The notes below the pieces were generated by a model that had not been told where the DNA came from, searched no databases, and saw only the letters and a list, made by a program, of their open reading frames with translations. A stretch of DNA of 64,000 nucleotides from contig NZ_CP141266.1 of the NCBI RefSeq assembly GCF_030540775.2, positions 3,955,001-4,019,000 of the forward strand, written 5' to 3'. The stretch comes from Flavivirga abyssicola. GTDB taxonomy: Bacteria; Bacteroidota; Bacteroidia; Flavobacteriales; Flavobacteriaceae. The position numbers and the translations under genes were made by a program. Below are positions 23,075-53,803 of the stretch, piece by piece (the first letter of the stretch is position 1; each line of letters begins with the position of its first letter).

Positions 23075-23480
23075 TTAAGTAGATTGCCTTATCGCTCTTG
23101 TGCTGAATTTGTTTCATAATCATTTTTTTATTGGCTATATAGTTGATTTGAAAAGGTACTGAAACAAGTTCAGTGCTGGGGAGGAAAGTCCGAACACCGT
23201 AGTGCAACATAGTGGTTAATTACCACCAGTCGTGAGGCTAGGAAAAGTGCAACAGAAAGTATGTACAGGTTATGCTGTAGTGAAATCAGGTAAACTCTAT
23301 GTGGTGCAATGTCATGTAAACCAGTGTTTGAGGGCTGCACGCTCGATGCTGGAGGGTAGGCAGCTAAAGTATATTGGTAACAATATACTCAGATAAATGA
23401 TAAGGTATTCTTGTGTTTGTTTTTAAGCAATTTTGAAACAAGTTCAGGATGAACAGAATTCGGCTTATAGATTTACTTGA
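23075..23480 (+). ncRNA. rnpB: RNase P RNA, bacterial class A
   Basis: Catalytic RNA that matures the 5' ends of tRNAs. The universally conserved block GAGGAAAGTCCGAACACC is at 23181-23198, the CAGAAAG element near 23252, and the closing ACAGAATTCGGCTTATAG at about 23453-23470. The ends were set by the P1 helix: TTAAGTAGAT at 23075-23084 pairs with ATTTACTTGA at 23471-23480 (ten pairs, two of them G-U). A GAAACAAGTTCAG motif appears twice (about 23161 and 23436) in separate helices. Identity is certain; the exact ends could shift by a few bases. Confidence 0.95.
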
Positions 23481-23486
23481 ATATAA

Positions 23487-48356: not shown

Positions 48357-49649
48357 TCATTTCAGCAAATAGCTTTTTAAATCTTCATATGTAGAAATGA
48401 CTACAGATTCTTTTTCTTTATCCATAACTGATTGAATTTGTTTTGGTAAAGGTTGTTCTTCTTTAATAACATCTTCAACAACGTCTAAAAATTTAGTAGG
48501 GTGAGCCGTTTCTAAAAATACACAATGCGCTTTAGGGTTTTCTTTTAAATAAGCTTTAGAACCTAAATAACCAACTGCACCATGAGGATCTGCCACATAG
48601 TTATATTGCGTATAGATTTCTTTCATGGCTTCTTTGGTAGCATCGTCAGAAAAACTAAAAGAAGAGATATTGTCCTTTAAGGTCTCAAATTTGTTTTTAT
48701 AGATTTCTTGAATACGAATAAAGTTACTAGGATCTCCTACATCCATAGCATTACTTATAGTCTGTACTGATGGTTTAGGAGTGTATAGCTGTGTTTTTAA
48801 ATATTCAGTAACCACATTGTTTTCGTTGTTTGATGCAATGAAATGATTGACTGGCAGGCCTAATTGCTGCGCCATCATACCAGCACAAACATTTCCGAAG
48901 TTCCCACTTGGTACAGAAAATACAATATCATCGTATTTTTTATGTAATTGCTTGTATGCAAACATAAAATAAAATAACTGTGGTAACCAGCGTGCTACGT
49001 TTATTGAGTTAGCAGAAGTTAACTGCATGTTACTAGTTAAAGTTTCATCTAAAAACGCCCTTTTTACCATGGCTTGGCAATCGTCAAATGTACCGTTGAC
49101 TTCTAATGCTGTAATGTTTTGACCTAGTGTAGTCAACTGTTTTTCTTGAATATCACTTACTTTTCCGCTAGGGTAGAGTATAACCACATTTACGCCTTTA
49201 ACACCCAAAAAACCATTAGCTACAGCACCACCTGTATCTCCAGAAGTGGCTACTAAAACTGTAACCTCATTAGTGTTATCTTTATTAAAATAACCTAAAC
49301 AACGCGCCATAAAGCGTGCCCCAACATCTTTAAATGCCATGGTTGGACCATGAAATAATTCTAAAGTTGAGATATTATCATTTAATTGAACCACAGGAAA
49401 CTCAAAAGACAATGTTTCTTCAATAATCGTTTTCAATATGTCTTCTGGAATTTCTGGAACTACAAATTGCTTAATAGCTTGAAATGCAATCTCCGTATGT
49501 GATAATTGATCTATGTTTTTAAAGAAATCATCACTTAAAGGCGTAATACTTTCAGGAAAATACAACCCTTTATCTGGTGCTAATCCTTTTATTACGGCCT
49601 CTTTAAAAGAGGTATTAGGTGCTTGTTTGTTTAGTGAGTAGTAATTCAT
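48357..49649 (-). CDS. thrC: Threonine synthase
   Basis: 430 residues. PLP-dependent conversion of O-phosphohomoserine to threonine. The PLP Schiff-base lysine is Lys107 in FHGPTMAFKDVGARF; the phosphate-binding loop is seen in VATSGDTGGAVANGF and VPSGNFGNVCAG. N-terminus YYSLNKQAPNTSFKEAVIKGL is typical. Last gene of the thr operon; separated from thrB by an inserted four-helix-bundle gene. Regulation by the upstream leader is expected. Confidence 0.96.
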   Translation of the reverse strand: MNYYSLNKQAPNTSFKEAVIKGLAPDKGLYFPESITPLSDDFFKNIDQLSHTEIAFQAIKQFVVPEIPEDILKTIIEETLSFEFPVVQLNDNISTLELFHGPTMAFKDVGARFMARCLGYFNKDNTNEVTVLVATSGDTGGAVANGFLGVKGVNVVILYPSGKVSDIQEKQLTTLGQNITALEVNGTFDDCQAMVKRAFLDETLTSNMQLTSANSINVARWLPQLFYFMFAYKQLHKKYDDIVFSVPSGNFGNVCAGMMAQQLGLPVNHFIASNNENNVVTEYLKTQLYTPKPSVQTISNAMDVGDPSNFIRIQEIYKNKFETLKDNISSFSFSDDATKEAMKEIYTQYNYVADPHGAVGYLGSKAYLKENPKAHCVFLETAHPTKFLDVVEDVIKEEQPLPKQIQSVMDKEKESVVISTYEDLKSYLLK

Positions 49650-49704: not shown

Positions 49705-50061
49705 TTAGTTAATATTTTTTCTAAATGCGTGCATCATGTTCATTAGGCCAAAAGCATCATTGTAAAAACCTGTAAAATCATTTTCAGAAATGTATTTTCT
49801 ACTTCTGGCTTTAAAGAGGCAGGTAACAACTTCTGCTAAAGAACGAATGGAGTAACCAATAAATTTTTTTTGTTCTGGGTTAGACTGACCGATAGATCCT
49901 TCAGAAATATTTAATGCTATTGAATCTGCTGCTCTTCTTATTTGAGATGATAAGTTAAACTTTTCTTTGTCTGGAAAGCTATTAGTAATTTTATCGATAT
50001 CTTCTCCAAAATCCATTGCCTTTTGCCAAATAATTAGCTTTTCAAATTTGAATTTATTCAT
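49705..50061 (-). CDS. Four-helix-bundle protein (S23/IVS family)
   Basis: 118 residues, all helical: FEKLIIWQKAMDFGEDI, FNLSSQIRRAADSIALNISEGSIGQSN, IGYSIRSLAEVVTCLFKARSRKY. This is the family first seen in 23S rRNA intervening sequences and also related to Avd of diversity-generating retroelements; it binds nucleic acid in some cases. No rRNA or reverse transcriptase is nearby. It interrupts the thr operon between thrB and thrC and is flanked by heptanucleotide repeats in opposite orientation (50084-50125 and ~49666-49687). Confidence 0.9.
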   Translation of the reverse strand: MNKFKFEKLIIWQKAMDFGEDIDKITNSFPDKEKFNLSSQIRRAADSIALNISEGSIGQSNPEQKKFIGYSIRSLAEVVTCLFKARSRKYISENDFTGFYNDAFGLMNMMHAFRKNIN

Positions 50062-50128: not shown

Positions 50129-51052
50129 TCAATAAATCTTTATTCCCTCCGTATTAATTTTTGTTATATGAATTTCAAATGTTATTCCCGTTTCTGAGTA
50201 CACTTTATTCATAGCGTCTTTAACACTTTTAGCGTTTTCTAATCCTTTACTTAATGTAAAAATAGAAGGACCAGAACCTGATATTCCAGCACCCAAAGCC
50301 CCATGTTCTAGCGAAGCTTCTTTTACTTCTTTATAATAAGGAATTAATCGACTTCTATAGGGCTCTACAATAACATCGTGTAATGATTTTTGTATTAAAT
50401 CAAAATCACTTGTATGTAGACCATGAATTAGACTTCCAAAATTAGCCCATTGGCTAATAGCATCTTGCAGAGGTACTTCTTTAGGAAGAATAGCTCTAGC
50501 TTCAGATGTTTTTACTTCTATCTGCGGATGAATAATTGTTGCATATAAATCTTCTGGAGAAGGAATTTCCAGAATCTCTAAAGGAGCAACACTTTTTACC
50601 AATGTAAAGCCACCAAAAATGGCAGGAGCAAGGTTGTCTGCATGCTCACATTTGCTGGCTAAAGCTTCTCCTTTCATGGCAAATTGCGTTAATTCTGTTT
50701 TATTACAGGGCTTTCCTAAAAGGGCATTCATTCCAAAAACACTACCAACGGCACTGGCAGCACTACTACCAATACCACTTCCAGGTTTTATGTTTTTGTA
50801 AATTTCAATTTCAAAACCACACGCTGGTTTTAGTGCTTCATACATCGCTAAAGCAGAAACACCAGCAACGTTTAACTCTGCTTCAAATGGTAAATCGAAT
50901 CCTTCAATTTTGGTGATATGAATCCCCTTTTTATCGGTTTTTCTAATGACCATTTCATCGCCAATACTGTCTAAACAGAATCCTAATACATCAAATCCAC
51001 AGGCTACATTAGCAACTGTTGCAGGTGAAAATATTTTTATTTCGTTTTTCAT
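50129..51052 (-). CDS. thrB: Homoserine kinase
   Basis: 307 residues, GHMP kinase. Phosphorylates homoserine for threonine synthase. ATP loop PGSGIGSSAASAVG (90-103); N-terminal SPATVANVACGFDVLGF; C-terminal GAGISGSGPSIFTL. Lies 87 bp after thrA; the spacer holds repeated AGAAAATAG-type and complementary pyrimidine tracts (about 51060-51138) that could fold together. Confidence 0.96.
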   Translation of the reverse strand: MKNEIKIFSPATVANVACGFDVLGFCLDSIGDEMVIRKTDKKGIHITKIEGFDLPFEAELNVAGVSALAMYEALKPACGFEIEIYKNIKPGSGIGSSAASAVGSVFGMNALLGKPCNKTELTQFAMKGEALASKCEHADNLAPAIFGGFTLVKSVAPLEILEIPSPEDLYATIIHPQIEVKTSEARAILPKEVPLQDAISQWANFGSLIHGLHTSDFDLIQKSLHDVIVEPYRSRLIPYYKEVKEASLEHGALGAGISGSGPSIFTLSKGLENAKSVKDAMNKVYSETGITFEIHITKINTEGIKIY

Positions 51053-51139: not shown

Positions 51140-53584
51140 TTAATTATTCCCAATTCTAATAATATCAGCAAATAACCCTGAGGCTGTTACTTCTGCACCA
51201 GCACCAGCACCTTTAATAATCATGGGCTGCTCTGGGTAGCGTTGTGTATAAAACATCACAATATTGTCTTTACCTTCTAGATTGTAAAATGGATGACCTT
51301 CTGGGATTTCTTGTAAACCAACATTAGCTTTACCATTATTTAATTGTGCCACATATTTTAATTGGCAATTTTTAGCTTTCGCGGAAGCGTATAAACTTTG
51401 ATAATGGGCTTCATCGTCAACTAATGTTTTATAAAAATCATCGACTGAACCACTTTTCAATCCTGATTCTGATAGGAAAGGTGTATTCGAAATATCTTCC
51501 AAATTCATTTCCATACCACTTTCACGAGCTAAAATCAATATTTTTCTAGCCACATCAACACCGCTTAAATCTATTCTTGGGTCTGGCTCTGTATAGCCTT
51601 CTGCTGCTGCTTGTTTAACAACATCATAGAATTTAGTGGTATCATTAAAATTATTAAATACAAAATTTAAACTTCCAGATAAAACAGCTTGAATTGATGT
51701 GATTTTATCACCAGAGGCAATTAAATTATTTAGTGTGTCAATAATAGGCAAGCCTGCACCTACATTGGTTTCAAATAAATATGGTGCGTTATATTTAAGA
51801 GATAGGCGCTTTAATAAACTGTAATTTTCATAATCACTAGAACATGCAATTTTATTACAAGCTACAACACCAATACTTTGGCGTAAATAGTCAGCATATA
51901 AATTCGCAACATCTTTATTTGCTGTCACATCAACAAAGATGCTATTACGTAAATTAAGAGATTTTGTTTTTTCAAAAAAGCCTTTTAAAGTAGCTTGTTC
52001 CCCAGAAGCGAGTTCTTCTTTCCAGTTTTTCAAGTCTATGCCAGCGTCATTAAAAATCATTGTTCTGGAGTTTGATAATCCAGCAATACGTATATTGATT
52101 TTTAAATTTTCTTTTAAATAGGCGTTTTGTTGCTGTATTTGATCTACTAACTTTTCTCCAACATTTCCAACGCCTGTAATAAATACATTCAGTTGTTTCG
52201 TTTCAATTTCAAAGAATTGCTCGTGCAAGGTATTTAAAGCCTTTTTTACGTCGTTTTCTGATATTACGGCTGAAATATTCTTCTCGGAAGCTCCTTGTGC
52301 AATAGCGCGAATGTTAATATTGTTTTTACCTAAAGTACTGAACATTTTTCCGCTAATACCTTGATGGTTTTTCATGTTATCGCCAACAAGCGCAACAATA
52401 GAAAGATTTGTTTCAACTATTATTGGGTTTATTTTATTTAAAGCAATTTCGTTTTCAAAAGCGGTGTCAATAGCTTGTTTAGCCATTTCAGCATCTTTTT
52501 CTTCAATTCCTAAACAAATAGAATGCTCGGACGATGCTTGAGTAATTAAGATGATATTAATTTTTTCCTGAGACAGAGTTTCAAATAACCTTTTAGAAAA
52601 CCCAGGAATACCAACCATACCGCTACCTTCTAAGGTTAATAACGCAATATTTCCAATATTACTGATTCCTTTTACAGGTGATACAGCACTTGTTTCCTCA
52701 TTAGAAATAATGGTTCCAACCGCATTTGGTTCTAATGTGTTTTTTATGTGGATAGGGATTTCTAAATCTAAGACTGGTTGCACTGTTGGTGGATATAAAA
52801 CTTTAGCACCAAAGTGTGATAATTCCATAGCCTCTTGGTATGAAATTTTTTCGATAGGGTAGGCTTGTTTTACCAATTTTGGATTGGTAGTATACATTCC
52901 ACTAACGTCTGTCCAAATCTCCAATTGTTCTACTTTTAATGCAGCAGCGACTATAGCTGCGGTAAAATCTGAACCGCCACGTCCTAGCGTCGTTTGTTCT
53001 CCTGCTATAGATTTTGATACAAAGCCAGGAAGAATAGTAATTTGTTGAGTTGCAGTTTTAAAATAATCTACTATATTTTTATCAGTAAGATTGTATTCAA
53101 CTTCTGCTTTTGTGAAATTTGAATTCGTTACGATTAATTCCTGAGAGTTTTTACGATCTGCAGAAAACCCGCGATTTTTCATAGTTTCTGAAATCATATA
53201 GGACGATAACAATTCTCCAAAACTCACCAGTTTATCGGATGTTTTCGGAGATAACTCATTTATTAGATAGATACCCTCTAGTAAATTTTTTAATTCTTCT
53301 AATCTGGTTTCTGTATATGCTATAATTGAACTAGCATGATTTGGATTTAATTCATTTATAATATTTAAATGAATATCTTTTATAGTATTAAAAGTGTCTT
53401 TAAAACTAGTGTCTTTATTTTGAGCTTGCTTACCAGCTAAAAGCAGCTTATCAGTAATACCACCAACGGCAGATACAACGCATATAATGGAATCTTTTTG
53501 CGAATATCCAGTTAAGATATCTATGACGTTATTTATGTTTTTTGCAGAACCTACTGAAGTTCCACCAAATTTTAAAACTTTCAT
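51140..53584 (-). CDS. thrA: Bifunctional aspartokinase / homoserine dehydrogenase
   Basis: 815 residues from MKVLKFGGTSVGSAKN; a longer frame to 53629 is rejected because those residues overlap the attenuator hairpin. The kinase domain (1-~290) has KFGGTSV and FAAIV-type active-site loops (GRGGSDFTAAIVAAAL); two ACT domains (~300-455) mediate Thr feedback; homoserine dehydrogenase follows (~460-815) with the NAD loop FITGVGNVGEKLV and FETNVGAGLPII. First enzyme gene of the thr operon, preceded by a Thr/Ile-rich leader peptide. Confidence 0.96.
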   Translation of the reverse strand: MKVLKFGGTSVGSAKNINNVIDILTGYSQKDSIICVVSAVGGITDKLLLAGKQAQNKDTSFKDTFNTIKDIHLNIINELNPNHASSIIAYTETRLEELKNLLEGIYLINELSPKTSDKLVSFGELLSSYMISETMKNRGFSADRKNSQELIVTNSNFTKAEVEYNLTDKNIVDYFKTATQQITILPGFVSKSIAGEQTTLGRGGSDFTAAIVAAALKVEQLEIWTDVSGMYTTNPKLVKQAYPIEKISYQEAMELSHFGAKVLYPPTVQPVLDLEIPIHIKNTLEPNAVGTIISNEETSAVSPVKGISNIGNIALLTLEGSGMVGIPGFSKRLFETLSQEKINIILITQASSEHSICLGIEEKDAEMAKQAIDTAFENEIALNKINPIIVETNLSIVALVGDNMKNHQGISGKMFSTLGKNNINIRAIAQGASEKNISAVISENDVKKALNTLHEQFFEIETKQLNVFITGVGNVGEKLVDQIQQQNAYLKENLKINIRIAGLSNSRTMIFNDAGIDLKNWKEELASGEQATLKGFFEKTKSLNLRNSIFVDVTANKDVANLYADYLRQSIGVVACNKIACSSDYENYSLLKRLSLKYNAPYLFETNVGAGLPIIDTLNNLIASGDKITSIQAVLSGSLNFVFNNFNDTTKFYDVVKQAAAEGYTEPDPRIDLSGVDVARKILILARESGMEMNLEDISNTPFLSESGLKSGSVDDFYKTLVDDEAHYQSLYASAKAKNCQLKYVAQLNNGKANVGLQEIPEGHPFYNLEGKDNIVMFYTQRYPEQPMIIKGAGAGAEVTASGLFADIIRIGNN

Positions 53585-53605: not shown

Positions 53606-53645
53606 GAAAAAAATATTTTGATGTTGCAATTGTAAAAATTACAAC
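53606..53645 (-). terminator. Putative attenuator terminator of the thr operon
   Basis: On the minus strand GTTGTAA (53645-53639) pairs with TTGCAAC (53629-53623, one G-U) around a nine-base loop, followed by an A/T tail with seven Ts. GTTGTAA can instead pair perfectly with TTACAAC inside the leader Thr codons, an exclusive alternative. The CCC...GGGG hairpin at the end of the leader ORF is a third structure. Confidence 0.5.
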
Positions 53646-53666
53646 GATAGCCTGAAGAATATATAG

Positions 53667-53774
53667 TTAGCAACCCCAAAGGGTTGTAATAATTGTAGTT
53701 GTACCAAAAATAGTAATAGTCCCTTCTGTTAAAGAAGAGAAATATATATCTGTATTTTGGTTTAAATGATTCAT
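53667..53774 (-). CDS. thrL: thr operon leader peptide
   Basis: A 35-codon ORF on the minus strand, ATG at 53774, TAA at 53669-53667. Residues 16-31 read TEGTITIFGTTTIITT: eight Thr and four Ile in sixteen, with nine Thr and five Ile in all. It ends LWGC, where the RNA can form a CAACCC/GGGTTG hairpin. It lies 82 bp before thrA and just after a candidate promoter. The composition mirrors the E. coli thr leader, where scarcity of Thr or Ile stalls the ribosome and prevents termination. Analogous mechanism is inferred; the ORF itself is plain in the sequence. Confidence 0.78.
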   Translation of the reverse strand: MNHLNQNTDIYFSSLTEGTITIFGTTTIITTLWGC

Positions 53775-53795
53775 TATATTCATATAATACTACTT

Positions 53796-53803
53796 CAAAA
53801 GTA
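53796..53803 (-). promoter_or_regulatory. Candidate -7 promoter element of the thr operon
   Basis: CAAAAGTA reads TACTTTTG on the minus strand, matching TAnnTTTG, 22 bp upstream of the leader start codon; predicted 5' end about 15 bases before the leader ATG. Confidence 0.5.

What the first reader, a model, noticed from the sequence alone, without database searches (positions are those of the whole stretch)
53606..53803. Thr/Ile-rich leader peptide and attenuator-like structures upstream of thrA
Directly before thrA on the minus strand there is a 35-codon ORF (53774 to 53667) with nine Thr and five Ile codons, twelve of them inside a sixteen-residue block. It is preceded by a TAnnTTTG element (53796-53803) and followed by a hairpin with a T-run (53606-53645). 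The terminator arm GTTGTAA can instead pair perfectly with TTACAAC inside the Thr-codon block, giving mutually exclusive folds. This mirrors thr attenuation in enterobacteria, in a phylum where such leaders are little documented and ribosomes rarely use Shine-Dalgarno pairing. The ORF and pairings are seen; the mechanism is inferred.
Basis: partly seen in the sequence, partly recalled or inferred. Interest (0 to 1): 0.82.

Follow-up and report, generated by a model that had tools for sequence, protein, structure and literature searches.

The report
Threonine leader upstream of thrA
A short stretch of RNA in front of the threonine-making genes of a marine bacterium encodes a tiny threonine-rich peptide, widely conserved in its family, that very probably tells the cell when threonine runs short, but it seems to lack the usual stop signal of such switches, so how it works is open.

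Summary
Observation confirmed: the 35-codon Thr/Ile ORF (53774-53667, minus strand), TAnnTTTG box and hairpin are there. The ORF is conserved in 12 of 12 genomes of the genus (Flavivirga by named matches), 73 of 80 named relatives and 94 of 113 family upstreams; controls gave 0 of 80, 0 of 400, 0 of 18. Its indels are in-frame. It is very probably a translated Thr/Ile sensor of thrABC.

Pairing of Thr codons with the terminator arm stays at shuffle level in 48 relatives, and its logic runs the wrong way; the hairpin has no adjacent U-run. What is conserved is hairpin P0 in the ORF, hairpin P1 at the last Thr codon, a motif ATAT(A/C)nTCC mostly 7-12 nt later, and hairpin P2 (compensatory changes, no U-run). 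I found no antiterminator. Classical thrA attenuators occur in related families and in the same family, and a classical his attenuator lies in the same genome. So this looks like a leader-peptide attenuator of a terminator-less variant; how transcription ends (Rho, NusA/NusG?) is inferred, not shown.

The parts
53796..53803 (-). TACTTTTG, -7 box of the Bacteroidetes primary sigma type (TAnnTTTG)
   Evidence: read; same box in 12 of 12 genus members; TAnnTTTG within 60 nt of the leader start in 96 of 115, shuffled 49 of 575; consensus as quoted in a passage of PMC7366714
53667..53774 (-). leader ORF, 35 codons plus stop, Thr/Ile rich
   Evidence: in-frame indels only
53682..53729 (-). control codons: 12 Thr/Ile in 16 residues, running into hairpin P1
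   Evidence: position profile over 115 leaders
53720..53740 (-). hairpin P0 inside the ORF (TCTCTTCT-TTAAC-AGAAGGGA)
   Evidence: 7 of 8 pairs with changes on both sides in 45 aligned relatives, 85.0% of cells paired
53671..53686 (-). hairpin P1 (CAACCC-TTTG-GGGTTG) over the last Thr codon and the end of the ORF, equivalent of region 1:2
   Evidence: 94.4% of cells paired in 45 relatives, 4 of 6 pairs never vary there; arms flipped to ACGGGG-TAA/TGA-CCCGT in L154 and L157
53654..53664 (-). conserved motif between the hairpins, here ATATATTCTTC, general form ATAT(A/C)nTCC
   Evidence: 7.96 bits per site against 4.8-5.3 in eight shuffles, 66 sequences; starts 7-12 nt after the P1 core in 93 of 107 scoring sequences of 110
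   Evidence: compensatory changes in 6 of 8 pairs of 45 relatives; tail not U-rich
53607..53613 (-). T7 run, nine bases beyond P2, part of an AU-rich stretch before the thrA start
51140..53584 (-). thrA, bifunctional aspartate kinase / homoserine dehydrogenase I, first gene of the presumed operon
   Evidence: NF006959 at 1037 bits, cut-off 726
50129..51052 (-). thrB, homoserine kinase
   Evidence: TIGR00191 and NF002288 above cut-off
48357..49649 (-). thrC, threonine synthase
   Evidence: TIGR00260 above cut-off

Best explanation
A ribosome-mediated attenuator of thrABC. RNA polymerase starts at the TAnnTTTG promoter; a ribosome translates the leader, and its speed over the Thr/Ile codons reports the charging of tRNA-Thr and tRNA-Ile. 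With enough threonine the ribosome runs to the stop codon and leaves, P1 refolds, and transcription ends in the G-poor untranslated stretch before thrA or early in it. With little threonine the ribosome is held on the control codons, its footprint covers P1, and transcription goes on into thrA. In this clade P2 sits where a classical attenuator has its terminator but lacks the U-run, so termination is probably helped by a factor (Rho, or NusA/NusG acting on a polymerase paused at the motif behind P1). Shown: the ORF, its conservation and in-frame indels, P0/P1/P2, the motif, the uniqueness to thrA, and classical relatives. Inferred: sensing of Thr/Ile, direction of control, and above all the factor-assisted termination.
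For: Leader in 73 of 80 named relatives and 94 of 113 family upstreams, controls 0 of 80, 0 of 400, 0 of 18. Indel runs in the ORF all multiples of three, 32 of 33 runs outside it not. Thr codons crowd into the seven codons before the P1 loop (partly built into the rule that picked the sequences). P0/P1/P2 compensatory: 57 cells against 17.2 +- 3.2 shuffled, 0 of 500. The covariance model hits 29 of 100 family genomes, once each, and all 29 lie at or within 230 nt upstream of thrA; in the own genome only thrA is a clear hit. thrA leaders with a true terminator and an 8-11 bp 2:3 helix in L133, L142, L159, L160 tie such leaders to attenuation. A classical his attenuator in the same genome suggests that the organism uses the mechanism. 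P1 to thrA has C 16%, G 6% over 99 sequences.
Against: No expression data. I could find neither terminator nor antiterminator in this clade, so two classical parts are missing. The C-over-G excess is weak: 16% of 620 stretches of the window reach the ratio of its leader. 7 of 80 named relatives and 19 of 113 family members fail the strict rule; L042 and L044 keep ORF and P1 but have few Thr codons. A P2-like hairpin was found in 97 of 117.
Confidence: 0.6

Rival explanations
1. Classical attenuation: P2 is the intrinsic terminator and the Thr block pairs with its 5' arm as the alternative fold.
For: 8-bp match ATTACAAC:GTTGTAAT in the window; T7 run downstream; pairing exceeds slid versions; listed low in the helix scan, 3 pairs and 5 cells changed on both sides; swap test in the near group p = 0.08.
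Against: Pairing at shuffle level in 48 relatives; own better than swapped in only 16 of 48 near and 22 of 42 distant sequences; T-run nine bases from the stem; no U-enrichment behind P2; wrong sign of control.
Confidence: 0.05
2. P2 is after all an intrinsic terminator of a weak kind (an interrupted U-tract such as ATTTTCTT stands behind it in some relatives) that needs NusA or NusG, and translation of the leader acts through P1 and pausing, not through an antiterminator.
For: P2 keeps the place of the terminator hairpin of classical relatives and is under selection as a helix.
Against: T frequency at +1..+7 behind P2 averages about 0.42 in the near group, little above what an AU-rich stretch gives; in the window the seven bases after the stem are ATCAAAA. 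Among P1-type leaders without a classical terminator the script calls P2 only in L089.
Confidence: 0.25
3. Control of translation, not transcription: the leader ribosome alters access to the thrA start or re-initiation on it.
For: The leader is mostly close (about 50-115 nt) to the thrA start.
Against: P2 ends 38 nt before the thrA start in the window, and nothing tested pairs specifically with the stretch before the start (P2 and P1 3' arms, near group, p > 0.4; the distant-group run of this test failed on an empty row); re-initiation would lower ThrA on starvation; classical relatives carry transcription terminators.
Confidence: 0.1
4. A small protein with a function of its own, not a sensor.
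For: The N-terminal MNHLNQN is conserved in the near clade.
Against: N-terminus, length and last residues differ between genera while Thr/Ile codons, P1 and position mostly stay; the conserved N-terminal stretch may serve RNA pairing (weak; upstream ORF against Thr block p = 0.0004 near, 0.008 distant); no Pfam or NCBIfam match for the window peptide.
Confidence: 0.03

Closest known systems
thr operon attenuator of enterobacteria (thrL; Rfam Thr_leader; anatomy recalled)
   Same: Thr/Ile-rich leader ORF directly before thrA, control codons entering the first hairpin (1:2)
   Different: no 3:4 terminator with U-run and no 2:3 antiterminator found; P0, the ATAT(A/C)nTCC motif and P2 are extra; no Rfam match at gathering score, only chance-level ones below it
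classical thrA attenuators of other Bacteroidota found here (L133, L142, L159, L160; L130 and L163 less complete)
   Same: same gene, Thr/Ile leader, similar spacing; L142 also has P1
   Different: strong terminator with U-run and, in those four, an 8-11 bp 2:3 helix
his attenuator of the same genome (G000:C1, upstream of hisG at 4093800-4094342)
   Same: leader peptide MAFIQLHHHHFHICSQAN, same logic
   Different: canonical terminator, -16.5 kcal/mol, with T-run and a 9-bp antiterminator
5' leader-peptide elements of Flavobacterium psychrophilum (PMC9723704)
   Same: clues for attenuation before amino-acid operons, same family; hisG and pheA named among conserved 5' elements
   Different: thrA is not named in the section read and 'threonine' does not occur in the main text; supplements not readable

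Membership tests
ribosome-mediated (leader peptide) attenuators in general | short ORF rich in codons of the operon's product, with signs of translation | tested here: met
ribosome-mediated (leader peptide) attenuators in general | expression responds to the amino acid through leader translation | not testable with these tools
   no expression data
classical thr attenuator (1:2 / 2:3 / 3:4) | 1:2 hairpin overlapping the control codons | tested here: met
   P1
classical thr attenuator (1:2 / 2:3 / 3:4) | 3:4 intrinsic terminator with adjacent U-run | tested here: not met
   positive control: the his leader is called by the same script
classical thr attenuator (1:2 / 2:3 / 3:4) | conserved 2:3 antiterminator excluding 3:4 | tested here: not met
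   The control (P2 arms with each other, 42 of 42 and 47 of 48) is favoured by construction, as the arms were picked as the best hairpin
Rfam leader families | covariance model match at gathering score | tested here: not met
   (whole window); one search gave six matches far below their gathering scores
Rho-dependent leader attenuators (tnaC- or mgtL-type, recalled) | termination depends on Rho | not testable with these tools
   only a weak C-over-G bias

The most novel reading that the evidence does not exclude
A terminator-less and antiterminator-less attenuator, the common form in the Flavobacteriaceae sampled: the only ribosome-controlled helix is P1, a polymerase pause hairpin whose conserved downstream element ATAT(A/C)nTCC holds RNA polymerase some 20-30 nt ahead of the last Thr codon. 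A ribosome held on those codons stays coupled to the polymerase and shields it from Rho/NusG-dependent termination; a ribosome that finishes and leaves exposes it. Attenuation would then read coupling itself, not alternative RNA folds.
Probability: 0.22. Interest if true: 0.8.

Novelty: new variant of a known kind. Interest (0 to 1): 0.55.

Why it matters
It would document amino-acid attenuation at thrA widely in a phylum whose ribosomes hardly use Shine-Dalgarno pairing (recalled), and it gives a natural series: classical terminator/antiterminator leaders and apparently terminator-less leaders before the same gene. That makes the question of how transcription and translation are coupled in Bacteroidota testable with one short reporter.

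Tried and rejected
Thr block: P2 5' arm as antiterminator: rejected. Linker AATTATA: P2 5' arm: 88% paired but at shuffle level, no change on both sides. P1 3' arm: linker: dropped, because in L154 the linker keeps its pyrimidines though P1 is flipped (L157 is unclear); the swap test of this pair used overlapping windows and says nothing. P0 3' arm: T-run: slight excess (2 of 500 shuffles for cells paired and score), perhaps relatedness; left open. Long helix ACCAAAA:TTTTGGT in the ORF: weak by pair counts (24-41 of 500 shuffles), but upstream ORF against Thr block is own-specific in the swap test (p = 0.0004 near, 0.008 distant); unexplained. P2 as a protein operator: thought unlikely, sequence too variable. 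An internal TAnnTTTG at the P2 5' arm (exact in roughly two fifths of the rows, by eye): not maintained. Two pattern searches of the own genome (pattern mis-spaced by one base, one further hit inside a 301-aa ORF) and weak model hits (L181 lies at a terminator-like hairpin behind an 86-aa ORF) gave no second copy. Literature searches with no paper on thrA leaders of this phylum in their listings: (listings only, none of those papers opened).

Limits of the counts: six fetched upstreams with no recognised start (L108, L109, L120, L123, L124, L126) were left out before all counts; the 80 family and 40 phylum stretches were picked by me from the listings, not at random, and 2 of the 40 (L178, L179) are of the same family. 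A1 holds 48 of 52 near sequences, A3 45 of 50; one search left out five and found no core in two. Shuffles keep base composition only; the real set had more restarts (30 against 8), and the weight matrix comes from the same sequences. The detection rule was set after seeing the sequences.

Full report
What is there. On the minus strand, ending 82 nt before thrA (53584-51140), lies a 35-codon ORF (53774-53667), MNHLNQNTDIYFSSLTEGTITIFGTTTIITTLWGC, with 9 Thr and 5 Ile codons, 12 of them in residues 16-31. A TACTTTTG box lies at 53803-53796. thrA, thrB and thrC follow on the same strand.

Conservation. The genus is Flavivirga by the named matches (91-96% identity for records with that name). In 12 of 12 genus genomes the ORF is kept (34-37 codons, ATG in 9, GTG in 3). 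In 27 of 27 further loci of the nearest group (26 genera) an ORF runs into the same hairpin, nearly all ending LWG or PWG plus one residue, though L042 and L044 have few Thr codons. It goes on into distant Flavobacteriaceae and other families of the phylum. With one rule (start codon, Thr/Ile score, hairpin at the end, stop 40-190 nt before thrA) it is found in 73 of 80 named loci, 94 of 113 family upstreams and 16 of 40 upstreams from the phylum-wide listing; reverse complements 0 of 80, shuffles 0 of 400, upstreams of aspartokinase paralogues 0 of 18. The rule was set after seeing the sequences. Indel runs inside the ORF are multiples of three (one 6-nt deletion is split 2+4 by columns of another row's insertion); outside, 32 of 33 are not. 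TAnnTTTG stands within 60 nt of the start in 96 of 115, median 19 nt, against 49 of 575 shuffles. This is what a translated leader with its own promoter should look like.

RNA structure. In 45 aligned relatives three local hairpins P0, P1 and P2 together show 57 cells with changes on both sides against 17.2 +- 3.2 in shuffles, 0 of 500 reaching it; P0 in 7 of 8 pairs, P2 in 6 of 8, P1 in 1 of 6. P1 (ACCC...GGGT) hardly varies in the near group but is flipped to ACGGGG-TAA/TGA-CCCGT in L154 and L157. The stop codon ends within 8 nt of the P1 3' end in 109 of 115. Thr codons crowd into the seven codons before the P1 loop, 98% of 115 having Thr in the 5' arm (partly a result of how P1 was picked). 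Behind P1 a motif ATAT(A/C)nTCC scores 7.96 bits per site against 4.8-5.3 in eight shuffles (66 sequences) and starts 7-12 nt after the P1 core in 93 of the 107 sequences that score above 3, of 110 examined. P2 stands mostly 20-33 nt behind P1; a hairpin was found there in 97 of 117, with mean best energy -3.3 against -1.7 kcal/mol in shuffles.

The proposed switch. Against this: it pairs better than slid versions, and the unbiased helix scan of the near alignment lists it with 3 pairs and 5 cells changed on both sides, far below P0 (7 pairs, 33 cells) and P2 (6 pairs, 28 cells). Its logic is also reversed: a ribosome stalled on the Thr codons would cover the strand needed for the antiterminator. 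No other tested upstream segment is a specific partner of P2. One result stays unexplained: the upstream part of the ORF and the Thr block are own-specific partners (p = 0.0004 near, 0.008 distant), which may reflect a long helix ACCAAAA:TTTTGGT (weak).

No terminator. The T-run starts nine bases behind the P2 stem. Over the relatives the bases right behind P2 are not U-rich (in the distant group some of the picked hairpins may not be P2). A script that finds the his terminator of the same genome (-16.5 kcal/mol) of 153 thrA upstreams (shuffles 3 of 77): 16 are P1-type, among them L142 with a true terminator and L089 on P2, the rest on P0, P1 or other ORF stretches by my reading; 9 are others; the window is not called. 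Related thrA genes do have true attenuators: L133 (same family; 11-bp 2:3 helix, terminator AAAACCTTCCTG..CAGGAAGGTTTTTTTT), L142 (P1 plus 8-bp 2:3 helix plus terminator), L159 and L160 (8 and 9 bp), these three from other families of the class; L130 (same family) has a terminator but no convincing 2:3 helix in the script; L163 was read by eye. The his operon of this very genome has a leader MAFIQLHHHHFHICSQAN with terminator and 9-bp antiterminator. So attenuation is probably in use here and is ancestral or recurrent at thrA, while this clade keeps the sensor and seems to lack the classical output.

Specificity. A covariance model of P1-motif-P2 has one clear match in the own genome, thrA (E 2e-22, next 0.08). 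In 100 family genomes it gives 29 matches, one per genome, all 29 at or within 230 nt upstream of thrA by the coordinates. The model was built from the near group and run with strict filters, so the 71 others are not evidence of absence.

Mechanism. Most likely the leader reports Thr/Ile tRNA charging and decides on elongation into thrABC. In the window the motif lies 18-30 nt behind the last Thr codon, roughly the spacing of a ribosome behind a paused polymerase (recalled), which suggests a pause that lets the ribosome catch up. The untranslated stretch behind P1 has 16% C and 6% G over 99 sequences, compatible with Rho but weak, as 16% of 620 window stretches reach the ratio of the window's leader. 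These last steps are inference.

Known. PMC9723704 (section 19 read whole, other passages seen) reports 'strong clues' for leader-peptide attenuation before amino-acid operons in F. psychrophilum and names conserved 5' elements before hisG and pheA, not thrA. PMC7366714 (passages) mentions leader-like sORFs in B. thetaiotaomicron. A comparative survey of attenuators by Vitreschak and others (2004), which I recall as including Bacteroidetes, was not seen, so a thrA leader of this phylum may be in print there. Seven further searches listed nothing on thrA leaders of this phylum by title or abstract start; none of those papers was opened.

Noticed in passing
L187 (own genome, C1, upstream of hisG at 4093800-4094342, outside the window): His leader peptide MAFIQLHHHHFHICSQAN before hisG with a canonical terminator and a 9-bp antiterminator.
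   Followed up: partly
49705-50061 (-): A four helix bundle protein gene (TIGR02436, 100.8 bits) sits between thrB and thrC.
   Followed up: no
L033 and L077: The leader lies about 172 and 290 nt before the recognised thrA start instead of about 82; L077 seems by eye to hold an inverted repeat between leader and gene.
   Followed up: no
L130, L133, L142, L159, L160, L163: thrA leaders switch between classical terminator attenuators and the P1-motif-P2 form, within one family and across the class.
   Followed up: partly
23165-23483 (+): Bacterial RNase P class A RNA gene, 157.1 bits.
   Followed up: no
L002 (own genome C1:2397908-2400310): A second aspartokinase/homoserine dehydrogenase paralogue, 37% identical, plus two aspartokinase-like matches; 18 genus upstreams of the paralogue and of one aspartokinase carry no such leader.
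   Followed up: partly
53720-53760 and 53680-53715 (-): Upstream ORF part and Thr block are own-specific partners across relatives; a helix ACCAAAA:TTTTGGT around P0 may be the reason.
   Followed up: partly
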